Shown here piece after piece: positions 52,208 to 63,613 of a DNA stretch of 64,000 nt (within the stretch, counting starts at the first letter, position 1; each line of letters opens with the position of its first letter). The position numbers were made by a program, and so were the translations under genes. The notes under the pieces are model-generated. The model was given only the letters and a program-made list of their open reading frames with translations, ran no database searches and was not told where the DNA came from. Location of the stretch: NCBI GenBank assembly GCA_006384855.1, contig VCJN01000004.1, positions 124,001 through 188,000 of the forward strand, read 5' to 3'. The stretch is from Tetraselmis striata. Its lineage: Eukaryota > Chlorophyta > Chlorodendrophyceae > Chlorodendrales > Chlorodendraceae.

Positions 52208-55200
52208 CTACGCCCGCTGCGGCGCAGGTTTGCTGGCGGCGGCGGCGGCCTTGGCGGTGATGGCCTGCACGCAGGTCATCGCGACAGTGCTGACGATGTC
52301 ATCCACGGTGCAGCCGCGGCTGAGGTCGTTCACCGGCATGCGCAGCCCCTGCATGAGCGGGCCGACCGCGAGGCAGCCGCTGGACTGCTGCACGGCCTTG
52401 TACGCGTTGTTGCCGGCGTTGAGATCCGGGAAGATGCACACGTTGGCGCGGCCCGCCACCTGCCCGGGGTCGCCCTTGTACTTGACGGCCGCAATCTCGG
52501 GGTCCACGGCCGCGTCAAACTGGATCGGCCCCTCCACGGGGATGCCGCGCGCCAGGATGGCGGGGTGCTGCTTCAGGAGCTCCGTCGCCCGCCGCACCTG
52601 CACCAGCACGACCACCAGCACGACCACGTGGGTATTTCAGCGGGGAGCGGCTCAGAACGTGCGGCCAGCGGCGTCGCACCGCGTGGCACCACCGCCGATC
52701 ACGGGGCGCGGGCGTGTAATCCGACAAATACTAGCTCTTTATTATTCGTTGTTACCAACGTTACCTAACGCTACCCAACGTGTTACCCAGGCAACGTGAC
52801 CAACATACACCTGAGCGGCACAAGCCCGCATCTGCAGCAGCAGCACCCGCACCCCCACGGTGTCGCCCAAGGGCTCAGGACCACTGCCCGGCGGCCATTG
52901 GGCCAAGCCCGCCGCGAGAGCAGCTTCCACACAGGGTGGTAGCTTGCTCACCGCTTGGTGTGAACCACCCGGGGAGCTCCCTGGGATGGGATAACGGACC
53001 ATAAATAACGGGCCGTGTGGTGCATCACATCGGCGCCGATTTAACCATGCCCCGCCGCATTCCTCTCCATCAGAAGATGCGCCCTAAGCTGCTTCACATC
53101 CACAAGGGTTAAGCATCATCATCCTTCAGATGTGCAATCACGCCTGTCGCGGATACGAGATCACGACTACGGCTTGCGGTTGTGCGTATTGGGTATGTTT
53201 GATGGATGTGTGTCATGTTCTCCCGGCAGCGAGAAAGATAACCGAAAACTATCGCCCCACCTTCACTGTTGTCCGATGCATGCGGACCCGGCGATAGTAT
53301 ATTCCTGATGGTAATGTGTGCCGCCAGCAACGAGAAACCGACGCATCATCATTCTACCCCCCCCCCCCCCCCTGGTCTCCCCCGTGTCGATGCACTGATG
53401 AGGAAGTGAACAGCAGGCAGCCATGGACGCCTCGGGCGGCAGCGGCTCCAGCATCCCGACCTTGGATGTCATGGGGCCAGTGTTGGAGTCGCCGGTGGCG
53501 TAGCTCAGCATGGCCACGCGCGGGATGAGGCCAAAGCTGGCGGCCGTGACGGCGCTCGCGGCGCCGATCTCCGCCAGCTGCTCCGCGGTCGGGTCCTCCA
53601 CGATCGCGCAGTCCGCAAACACCTTGGCGCCCTGTTCCAGCAGCATGAAGAAGGCGCTGCTCACCATGGCGGCGCCTGGGGCTGTCTTGATGACCTGCGC
53701 GGGGCGACGTAAGGGGGGAAAGGACCAGCGCAGATCGGACTCAGCACTGCGGCCCTGCTAGGGGGCTCAAGCATGTATACACATAAACCTGCGCCTTTAT
53801 ATTTACCTGTAGTAAATAAATAACATGGAGATAACTAAGCCTGCCGATGTCGATGTCAATGTAGTATATGTGGATGTCGATGCCGGTATCGATGCTGATG
53901 TGGATGCGGATGTAGATGTCAATGTTGGTGTTGGTGCATATGTCAATGTCCATGGCGATGAAATAGATGTCAATGTTGATGCAGAGGCAGATGTTGGCGT
54001 CGATGTAGATCTCTGCGGCGATGTCGATGACCGTGGCGATATCGGTATTGATGTCGGTATCGATGGCAATGTCGATGTAAATATCGATATGGATGTCGAT
54101 GTAAATATCAATGTCGATGTCGATGTTGATGTAGGCCATATATGTAGATGGTAAAGCAAATGAGGGGCCGAATGGGGATGTTAACGAACAAGGAGCCAAA
54201 CAGACAATGCGGAGCAAAAAGGGCGGAAACGGACGAAATAAATCAGAGGACCTAGTCTATGCAGAGGCCCTGATTGGGGCAAGTCCTAACTATACTTATA
54301 CAATCCAAAATACATGCTGACTAAAGGAGTGGTGGGAATCAGGGCGCATGGGGCTTCAGGCGGTATCGCGGAGGTGGAAAAGAGCGTGGCCGTTGTTTAG
54401 CAAAAGGATTGAAGGGGGGGGGGGGGGGGGGGGGAACCTGCAGCGCGGGCCTCATTGTGTCGGCGGTGGTGTGGATGGCGCCGCTGACCATGCCGTCCGC
54501 GGCGCCGGTGGCCATCATCATGGTGGCGTACATGTTGGGGTTGCTGCGCAGCTGCTGCGTGGCGGCCTCCAGCGTCATGCCCTTGGCCTTGCGCCTATCG
54601 GCGAGCTCTGCGGCCAGGGCCTGCGCCCAGTGCGTAGAGGCACACCAGTGGGTAGCGGTGTTGATCTTTGTCAATCAACACAAATTGCACCACTAAAAGA
54701 AAATGCAAAAAATATAATGTCGGTTTATTGCCTCTGCGGGCCTGAAGCACAAAGTTGTGCTACATCACGTCAATACATTTGTGGTATGTTACGATGAATC
54801 TCGACTCCGTGTAATTCGTCTTCAGAGGTAGCTCCCCATCACAACAATGCTATCGCTGTTGTAATCGGTTGTCATGTGCGCGAAGTGCTTCGAAGTGCGA
54901 CTACGGGGGTAGATCCAACTGCGCAGGTAAATGGGGACTTCCATGGGCTGGCGGCCATGGCGGGCACACACCGGCAGCTCGTCGTCTGTCTCTGGGTCAA
55001 TCAGGCTCGCGGCGGAGATGTCCACCTGGACTGATGTGGCCAAGTTCATGATCTCCTCCGGCTTGCCCAGGATGGTCAGCTGTGCAGGCGCGGGAGCAAA
55101 CACATTTGGACAAGGGGGAAGGGGGTGGGGTTGAGAGGGGGGGGGGGGGGGGGCAAGAGTCAGCACCGGCAACATCGTCGCCACGATAGGGCATGGGTGC

Positions 55201-62700: not shown

Positions 62701-63613
62701 GGGGGCATGCGGCGGCAGGGGGCCGCACACCTGCGGGACGTCAAACAGGCGCTGCGCAGTGCGGATGCCGCTGAGGCTGGGCGGGTTGTGCAGCGGCGCC
62801 AGCGCGCACGCCTCCTCGATCGCCGCCGTGACGTCGTCCGTGATCACCGCGGCGCTCTGAAAGTGCGGGCCGCCGTGCACCTGCCCGCCCCGCCCAGCGC
62901 GGCAGCGGTGAGTGCCCGCTGGCGTGCTGGGACGGGAGCCAAGGGTTCCCCCCAGCACAGGCTCAACCCGCCAGACATACCCCTGTCACCTGGCTCACTG
63001 CCTGGCACCCTGCTCAGGGGAAGCCCCTGGCCATCATCCCCTGCCTGCCATGCACATGCCACTGGGATGGCATGCTGTTGCACAGCCACGCAGCCTGGGG
63101 CTGCAATGTATGGACCACACCCACATGTCCGATTCAAGGGCAAGCATAATACGCAGTAGAGGGTATGCTAAGCAGAGGGTGTGAACAGCGTATTCTTACA
63201 TGTAAGAGTCTATGAAGGGAAAGCAATTGCCAAAAATGCAGCGGGTGTGATTAGGGTACAGGGCCTTTCAACTGTGTGGGCAACCGGGCATCAGGGGCAC
63301 GCACCACCCGGTGACCCACGCATGCGATGTTCAGTGGAGCGCCCGGACGCTCCAGCAGCTTCAGAACGGCGGCCAGGCCGGCCTGGTGGTCGGGAAAGTC
63401 GCCCTCTACGGCGGTGACGGCCGGGCGGCCGGGCGCGGTGGGCGCGGGGTGGTCAGTGTGCCTCACTCCGCCCGACGACGAGGCGCCGATGCGCTCCACC
63501 AGCCCGCTGGCGCGCACCGCCAGCGCACCACCCGGCTCCAGCACGCGATACACGGCGTACTTGAGGCTGGAGCTGCCAGCGTTAAGCACCAGCGTGTGCA
63601 GTGGGGGCGGCAT
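52208..63613 (-). CDS. ACK-PTA: Acetate kinase-phosphate acetyltransferase fusion protein
   Basis: About 16 exons: 63305-63613, 62731-62880, 61661-61787, 61371-61556, 60657-60940, 59659-59977, 58684-58811, 58068-58511, 57670-57795, 57125-about 57305, 56165-56381, 55217-55364, 54972-55079, 54438-54620, 53461-53694 and 52208-52597 (stop). Phases agree at every junction except the acceptor near 57.3 kb. The product is about 1,177 residues: acetate kinase (about 413), a 24-residue linker ([20 protein letters not shown] plus AQGQ), then a long-form phosphate acetyltransferase (about 740) with P-loop-like, DRTGG and catalytic domains. It would convert acetyl-CoA and phosphate to acetate and ATP via acetyl-phosphate. 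The start at ATG 63613 ([20 protein letters not shown]) leaves no transit peptide. The frame is open upstream to a TAG near 63.77 kb without an ATG, so an upstream leader exon is possible. Confidence 0.88.
53840..54140. repeat. Degenerate GATGTC-type minisatellite in a fusion-gene intron
   Basis: About 50 imperfect hexamer units (GATGTC, AATGTC, GATATC and similar) inside the intron between exons 54438-54620 and 53461-53694. Both strands are open (Asp-Val or Ile-Asp runs), but this is repeat, not gene. Confidence 0.9.
61281..61348. repeat. Telomere-like inverted repeat in a fusion-gene intron
   Basis: TTTAGGATTTTTAGGG and TCTTTAGGGTTTAG face CCCTAAAACCCTAAACATCC across a short centre. The intron is that between exons 61371-61556 and 60657-60940, about 23 nt from the 5' splice site. 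Units match the plant/green-algal TTTAGGG motif in both orientations. Confidence 0.85.
61922..62494. repeat. GATGG-rich minisatellite with a 215-bp duplication
   Basis: Within the intron between exons 62731-62880 and 61661-61787. A block at 61922-62137 recurs at 62277-62494 with scattered differences, sharing GGGGATGGCAGATGG, GGTGCAATGGTGAGG and ATGGCGATAGCAATAATG. The whole intron is purine/GATG-rich. Confidence 0.85.

What the first reader, a model, noticed from the sequence alone, without database searches (positions are those of the whole stretch)
52208..63613. Single gene encoding fused acetate kinase and phosphate acetyltransferase
Seen: one exon (59659-59977) continues without a stop from the acetate kinase C-terminus (NEE motif) through a 24-residue linker into the first strand of the phosphate acetyltransferase N-terminal domain. 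The next exon joins in phase and keeps the alignment to long-form Pta. Known: in bacteria and in characterised algae the two enzymes are separate proteins, often from neighbouring genes. Inferred: a bifunctional enzyme of about 1,177 residues that could channel acetyl-phosphate. I am not aware of a described eukaryotic fusion in this order, but I cannot search.
Basis: partly seen in the sequence, partly recalled or inferred. Interest (0 to 1): 0.87.

Follow-up and report, generated by a model that had tools for sequence, protein, structure and literature searches.

The report
Fused acetate kinase–phosphate acetyltransferase gene
A green alga carries one gene in which two enzymes that work in sequence on acetate are joined into a single protein; the same joined protein turns up in several other groups of algae, so it looks overlooked rather than unique.

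Summary
The fusion is real. The window is nuclear DNA of an alga that matches Tetraselmis striata. A 16-exon gene (63613..52208, minus strand, GT-AG introns, fitting phases) encodes 1,166 aa (122 kDa): acetate kinase, a short linker, then long-form phosphate acetyltransferase. Support for one protein: (1) exon 59977-59659 runs from the kinase end into the Pta start; (2) the other haplotype (contig C74) keeps all 16 exons, dN/dS about 0.19; (3) a second, about 50% identical gene in the same genome (contig C1633) is also fused, shares 9 of its 10 introns with the window gene and has one exon spanning the junction; (4) a public 3.9-kb contig encodes that paralogue whole without introns, and a transcriptome holds a complete relative. 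The architecture is not unique: kinase-first fusions of about 1,150 aa occur in haptophytes, diatoms, bolidophytes, pelagophytes, a cryptophyte and one sequence labelled chlorarachniophyte, where named often only 'Probable acetate kinase'. My ten searches of an open-access library found no description. The main catalytic residues are kept in both halves. Dual activity and channelling are inferred, not shown.

The parts
63305..63613 (-). Exon 1, residues 1-103, acetate kinase N-terminus (N11 = N7 of the Methanosarcina enzyme)
   Evidence: 63613 is the first ATG of its open stretch
62731..62880 (-). Exon 2, acetate kinase
61661..61787 (-). Exon 3, acetate kinase
61371..61556 (-). Exon 4, acetate kinase; acceptor at 61556 preferred over an in-frame alternative at 61613
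   Evidence: agreement with P0002
60657..60940 (-). Exon 5, acetate kinase
59659..59977 (-). Exon 6, junction exon, residues 353-458: kinase C-terminus with NEE, linker (412-440), first strand of Pta
   Evidence: spanned by one exon in the paralogue
58684..58811 (-). Exon 7, Pta N-terminal domain
58068..58511 (-). Exon 8, Pta N-terminal domain
57670..57795 (-). Exon 9, Pta, DRTGG region
57125..57272 (-). Exon 10, Pta, DRTGG region
56165..56381 (-). Exon 11, Pta
55217..55364 (-). Exon 12, start of the Pta catalytic domain
54972..55079 (-). Exon 13, Pta catalytic domain
54438..54620 (-). Exon 14, Pta catalytic domain (R908, R955); the public model P0002 stops just after this exon
53461..53694 (-). 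Exon 15, Pta catalytic domain
52208..52597 (-). Exon 16, Pta C-terminus (S1130, R1131, D1137) and stop

Best explanation
The locus is one nuclear gene of a Tetraselmis alga for a fused enzyme: acetate kinase joined by a short, probably disordered linker to a long-form phosphate acetyltransferase (N-terminal domain, DRTGG, catalytic PTA_PTB). Shown: one continuous coding gene through the junction exon, both catalytic domains complete and constrained, a fused paralogue in the same genome. Inferred: the protein catalyses acetate + ATP <-> acetyl-phosphate + ADP and acetyl-phosphate + CoA <-> acetyl-CoA + Pi in one polypeptide, probably in the cytosol since no N-terminal extension is seen. It would either feed acetate into acetyl-CoA or, in dark anoxia, make ATP and acetate. 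The fusion keeps the two enzymes at 1:1 and together; handing over acetyl-phosphate by proximity is possible but unproven.
For: Gene model with 15 GT-AG introns and fitting phases. Full-length family matches above curated cut-offs: TIGR00016 396.1 bits (cut-off 293.4), PRK05632 612.9 (418), TIGR00651 325.3 (311.2). Allele on C74 with 16 intact exons, 14 of 1,166 residues changed, dN 0.0056, dS 0.0298. Paralogue on C1633: same order, 9 of 10 introns shared in position and phase, junction inside one exon. P0003 matches that paralogue over its 1,192 residues and comes from a contig of 3,869 nt, against about 7.1 kb in the genome; P0005 is a complete transcriptome ORF. Relatives in other algae with the same order. 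16 of 18 kinase positions compared are identical to the Methanosarcina enzyme, and R87, R133, S309, R310, D316 of its Pta are kept (their roles are recalled).
Against: No RNA from the window gene itself was seen. The public model of the C74 allele (P0002) is truncated at 964 aa after exon 14. Two kinase positions differ (H184 to Y194, N211 to A221); in Pta, S128 and L132 differ and C159 fell in a gap. The kinase half is less constrained between alleles (dN/dS 0.36) than the Pta half (0.10). The C1633 genomic copy differs from P0003 by one base near C1633:113074.
Confidence: 0.85

Rival explanations
1. Two neighbouring genes read as one by mistake, as in Chlamydomonas, where PAT2 and ACK1 are contiguous but separate.
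For: PAT2 and ACK1 are contiguous in Chlamydomonas (PMC3660698, passages). In bacteria adjacent ackA and pta are normally separate: 1 of 80 fetched loci had a single frame of 950 aa or more, 8 of the 80 matching only the kinase part.
Against: The junction exon is open through both; the paralogue spans the junction in one exon with about 68 Pta residues; an intron-free contig encodes the whole paralogue. No stop, polyadenylation or start between the halves was needed or looked for experimentally.
Confidence: 0.03
2. A fused protein in which the kinase half has lost or changed its activity, so that it is in effect a Pta with a regulatory or structural kinase-like domain.
For: Kinase half changes faster between haplotypes (dN/dS 0.36 against 0.10); positions of N211 and H184 are changed.
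Against: The other 16 of 18 kinase positions compared are identical; score above the ackA cut-off. The same changes occur in unfused algal kinases: HLGAG in P0124 and P0173, Y at the H184 position in P0124 and F in P0173.
Confidence: 0.07
3. The fusion arose separately in the Tetraselmis line from the green algal enzymes, by loss of the spacer between contiguous genes, and is unrelated to the fusions of other algae.
For: For the kinase half, grouping Tetraselmis with green single kinases is not rejected (p 0.16). PMC12924338 (passages) reports ACK and PAT as ancestral in Chloroplastida.
Against: Kinase tree: the 26 fused-family rows given are one side of a branch, 93/97, not starred. Pta tree: Tetraselmis lies in the algal fused clade at 100/99, and grouping with two plant-side Pta is rejected (p 0.0017).
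Confidence: 0.2

Closest known systems
Kinase-first fused proteins of other algae in public databases (Prymnesium parvum P0006/P0010, Chrysophaeum taylorii P0011, Rhodomonas lens P0013, Pseudo-nitzschia P0016, Aureoumbra P0018, Triparma P0025, Seminavis P0026), where named 'Probable acetate kinase', 'Acetate kinase' or 'hypothetical protein'
   Same: Same domain order ACK, Pta N-domain, DRTGG, PTA_PTB, similar length
   Different: 38-42% identical to the window protein; several have N-terminal extensions; P0013 has EF-hand domains
Separate ACK and PAT of Chlamydomonas (ACK1/PAT2, ACK2/PAT1)
   Same: Same two reactions; PAT2 and ACK1 contiguous (PMC3660698, passages)
   Different: Separate proteins in two organelles; sequences not in hand here
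Bacterial ackA-pta neighbours
   Same: Same two enzymes, often in the same order
   Different: Separate frames in 79 of 80 loci fetched with P0043
Prokaryote-like Pta-first fusions (such as P0036, P0040, P0046) and the kinase-first P0043
   Same: Both enzymes in one frame
   Different: 25 of the 67 proteins with both parts have the reverse order. Six of these 25, and P0043, were put in trees and fell among bacteria (P0043 also 44, 47)

Membership tests
Acetate kinase (PF00871 / TIGR00016) | Family profile over its length, above curated cut-off | tested here: met
Acetate kinase (PF00871 / TIGR00016) | Catalytic and substrate residues (roles recalled) | tested here: met
   N7, R91, H123, D148, H180, R241, E384 kept; H184 to Y, N211 to A
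Acetate kinase (PF00871 / TIGR00016) | Acetate kinase activity | not testable with these tools
   needs an assay
Phosphate acetyltransferase, long form (PRK05632) | Full-length profile, including N-terminal domain and DRTGG | tested here: met
   PRK05632 612.9 bits, cut-off 418, model 4-706 of 708; DRTGG 46.8 bits, cut-off 25.2
Phosphate acetyltransferase, long form (PRK05632) | Catalytic residues (roles recalled) | tested here: met
   R87, R133, S309, R310, D316 kept; S128 to T, L132 to M; C159 unaligned
Phosphate acetyltransferase, long form (PRK05632) | Phosphate acetyltransferase activity | not testable with these tools
   needs an assay
Algal kinase-first fused family | Same domain order in one frame | tested here: met
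Algal kinase-first fused family | Both halves group with the other algal fusions | tested here: inconclusive
   Pta clade 100/99 but with single-Pta rows inside (P0243, P0244, P0247, P0249); strict fused-only clade rejected, p 2e-121. Kinase 93/97, not starred
Ancestral Chloroplastida ACK/PAT pair | Groups with unfused plant and green algal enzymes | tested here: inconclusive
   Pta half rejected against Adiantum P0266 and unnamed P0274 (p 0.0017); kinase half not rejected with P0124, P0173, P0207 (p 0.16). No Chlamydomonas sequence was in hand

The most novel reading that the evidence does not exclude
An old ACK-PTA fusion, formed once, is the acetate-activation enzyme of many photosynthetic eukaryotes, was passed between algal lineages (into the Tetraselmis line too, where it replaced the ancestral separate green pair and then duplicated), and hands acetyl-phosphate from site to site without release.
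Probability: 0.2. Interest if true: 0.75.

Novelty: new variant of a known kind. Interest (0 to 1): 0.57.

Why it matters
The Pta-Ack route is a central switch between acetate use and fermentative ATP. The algal papers I saw treat the two enzymes as separate. A fused form in several algal groups would change how algal genomes are annotated (these proteins are named as acetate kinase only, where named), gives a natural subject for testing acetyl-phosphate channelling, and poses a testable question about gene transfer among algae, since the Pta half in Tetraselmis does not group with the plant-side Pta tested.

Tried and rejected
My first gene model (185 aa) used an acceptor at 61613 that adds 19 residues; dropped for 61556. 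'Two adjacent genes' was rejected by the paralogue. 'Unique to this alga' was rejected. Contig C1698 (one kinase match, 391-aa open frame, beside a MaoC-Pta-like frame) looks like a bacterial contig in the assembly, judged from its dense intron-free frames; no taxonomic test was run. Whether the genome holds a separate Pta gene could not be asked: the PF01515 search of G000 did not complete 16 times. The acetate kinase search did answer: its 15 matches lie on C4, C74, C1633 or C1698, so no separate algal acetate kinase was seen. Rfam: 0 matches at gathering cut-offs. A phage search of window 1-8000 gave nothing. Bacterial-type promoter and TTACA scans were uninformative for an alga. The ten longest other frames that I chose gave Pfam hits in 3 of 10, one of these three below its cut-off. 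P0021, labelled Chlorarachnion, sits with Triparma P0025 in the trees and may be contamination or transfer.

Full report
What was checked. The window is G000:C4:124001-188000 of a 224-Mb, 2,903-contig assembly. The closest public protein, P0002, bears the label jgi/Tetstr1/466819/TSEL_001015.t1; I read Tetstr1 as Tetraselmis striata (Chlorodendrophyceae). Up to residue 959, P0002 has the same 11 differences from the window protein as the copy on contig C74, so P0002 looks like the product of C74.

Gene model. On the minus strand 16 exons from 63613 to 52208 give 1,166 residues, 122.3 kDa. The 15 introns are GT-AG and the phases fit. Exon 4 has two in-frame acceptors; 61556 was chosen because it matches P0002 and leaves no insert against relatives. 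63613 is the first ATG of its open stretch, so no targeting peptide is apparent unless an upstream exon exists.

Domains. Pfam on the 1,185-residue first model: Acetate_kinase, DRTGG, PTA_PTB. NCBIfam on the corrected model: ackA 7-411, phosphate acetyltransferase 441-1152. Residues were mapped through the HMMER alignments. Of 18 kinase positions asked for, 16 are identical to the Methanosarcina enzyme; H184 is Y194 and N211 is A221. Of 10 Pta positions asked for, 7 are identical (R87, R133, P134, K283, S309, R310, D316), S128 and L132 differ, and C159 fell opposite a gap. Which of these are catalytic is recalled.

Second haplotype. Contig C74 aligns to the window in pieces of 600 bases or more totalling about 51 kb at a mean of 95% (80,000 of its 84,273 bases were compared). 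It looks like the other haplotype, though a large duplication is not excluded. All 16 exons are intact and 14 of 1,166 residues differ. dN/dS values: 0.0056/0.0298 overall, 0.0106/0.0296 in the kinase, 0/0.039 in the linker, 0.0031/0.0295 in Pta; 28 of 41 base changes are at third positions.

Second fused gene. Contig C1633 carries kinase exons followed by Pta exons in the same order. P0003 (1,192 aa, contig of 3,869 nt, source jgi) maps onto it from end to end with at most one mismatch a segment, apart from a one-base shift near C1633:113074 that may be an assembly slip or an allele. The gene spans about 7.1 kb with 10 introns (one GC-AG, the rest GT-AG); 9 lie at the same residue and phase as introns of the window gene, one is its own, and 6 of the window gene's 15 are absent. 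Its junction exon covers residues 366-517, with the Pta match from residue 450. A 3.9-kb contig with one unbroken frame against a 7.1-kb gene with introns means, most simply, that the contig comes from spliced RNA; the record type of the contig was not visible. So the fusion predates the split of the two genes.

No separate algal kinase was seen: the 15 acetate kinase matches in G000 fall on C4, C74, C1633 and C1698. The matching question for Pta did not complete.

Distribution. A search with the whole protein, whose length limits shut out single kinases, scored 7,994 candidates, gave 2,893 hits and listed the best 120. I tested the order in 126 proteins: those 120, the window exon P0001 and five picked by hand. 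Of the 126, 67 matched both the kinase and the Pta catalytic part: 42 with the kinase first and 25 with Pta first. Of the 42, 33 also matched the Pta N-terminal part; of the other 9, P0043 is a full-length protein by its Pfam domains and 8 are short (729-782 aa). Named kinase-first sources are Tetraselmis, Prymnesium parvum (two), Chrysophaeum taylorii, Rhodomonas lens, Pseudo-nitzschia arenysensis, Aureoumbra lagunensis, Chlorarachnion reptans, Triparma verrucosa, T. laevis (partial) and Seminavis robusta (the higher groups of those not looked up are recalled).

Bacterial control. One of 80 (L084, Nocardioides) has a single frame of 950 aa or more; 8 of the 80 matched only the kinase part.

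Trees (rows were selected by me). Kinase, quick, 69 rows: 29 of 30 fused rows, 5 short rows and P0122, P0123 lie on one side (support 90); P0043 lies among bacteria. Kinase, careful, 44 rows (dropped from the first: 7 fused rows P0002, P0019, P0022, P0027, P0028, P0050, P0246, 2 short rows, 6 Pta-first rows, 10 bacteria): the 26 fused, short and P0122 rows are one side of a branch at 93/97, not starred; the single kinase P0123, which had paired with P0246 in the first tree, falls outside. P0122 and P0242 both have a longest contig of 4,108 nt and complementary content, so they look like one fused contig with a broken frame. Pta, quick, 72 rows: fused rows other than P0043 with the short rows, six single or partial Pta and P0249 form a clade at 100. 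Pta, careful, whole Pta half, 43 rows: 23 fused rows with P0242, P0243, P0244 (Guillardia), P0247 and P0249 form a clade at 100/99; P0266 (Adiantum) and P0274 lie outside. Against a simple picture: holding the fused rows (plus P0242) alone together is rejected (p 2e-121), so single Pta genes lie inside, by later splitting, incomplete models or repeated fusion. Placing the Tetraselmis group with P0266 and P0274 is rejected (p 0.0017); the like idea for the kinase half with P0124, P0173 and P0207 is not (p 0.16). One old origin with later splits is the simplest reading but is not shown, and the source of the Tetraselmis gene stays open.

Structure. AlphaFold2 on the relative P0004 (1,196 aa, 23 sequences): mean pLDDT 78.8, pTM 0.58, linker 433-451 below 50. 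Foldseek's best PDB matches are acetate kinases, then Pta structures. How the two halves sit against each other is not reliable.

Literature. Ten searches of the open PMC library. Six fusion phrases: 0 papers. Tetraselmis with acetate kinase: 6 papers listed, of which I looked at passages of one, PMC8003979, which describes PAT and ACK as separate genes in Chlamydomonas. PMC3660698 (passages): separate enzymes, PAT2 and ACK1 contiguous. PMC12924338 (passages): ACK and PAT ancestral in Chloroplastida, no ACK-PAT fusion in the passages seen. Most subscription papers and all supplements were out of reach, so the fusion may be described elsewhere.

Mechanism. From established enzymology the protein should interconvert acetate and acetyl-CoA through acetyl-phosphate. 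That ACK works as dimers and long Pta as hexamers is recalled. The flexible linker would allow larger assemblies with both sites close; whether the intermediate is handed on is unknown.

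Noticed in passing
window 36843-40404: No match of 600 bases or more in the other haplotype contig C74, and an open frame at 38212-39870 with a phage-integrase SAM-like domain (PF02899, E 6e-8): probably a mobile element present on one haplotype.
   Followed up: partly
window 30815-31789, minus strand: Long exon of a class I fructose-bisphosphate aldolase gene (PF00274, E 8.5e-130).
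   Followed up: no
L013 (G000:C1698:24001-31889): Contig of the algal assembly with dense bacterial-looking frames, including a MaoC-Pta-like frame followed by a kinase frame: likely bacterial contamination.
   Followed up: partly
protein P0013 (Rhodomonas lens): Fused enzyme of a cryptophyte with EF-hand Pfam domains, which suggests calcium control.
   Followed up: no
proteins P0248 and P0059: Kinase-containing proteins that also bear PF00755 (carnitine acyltransferase family); real fusions or gene-model errors.
   Followed up: no
proteins P0029-P0035 and P0037: Eight short kinase-first fusions (729-782 aa) with the Pta catalytic part but no detected Pta N-terminal part; the five put in trees form one group.
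   Followed up: partly
window, introns near 58828-58850, 57091-57113 and 54412-54433: Long runs of C close to splice sites in several introns of the gene; similar runs occur in the paralogue on C1633.
   Followed up: no
window 61557-61613, minus strand: Two in-frame acceptors for exon 4, 57 bases apart; use of the outer one would insert 19 residues after the kinase HGINYS motif.
   Followed up: partly
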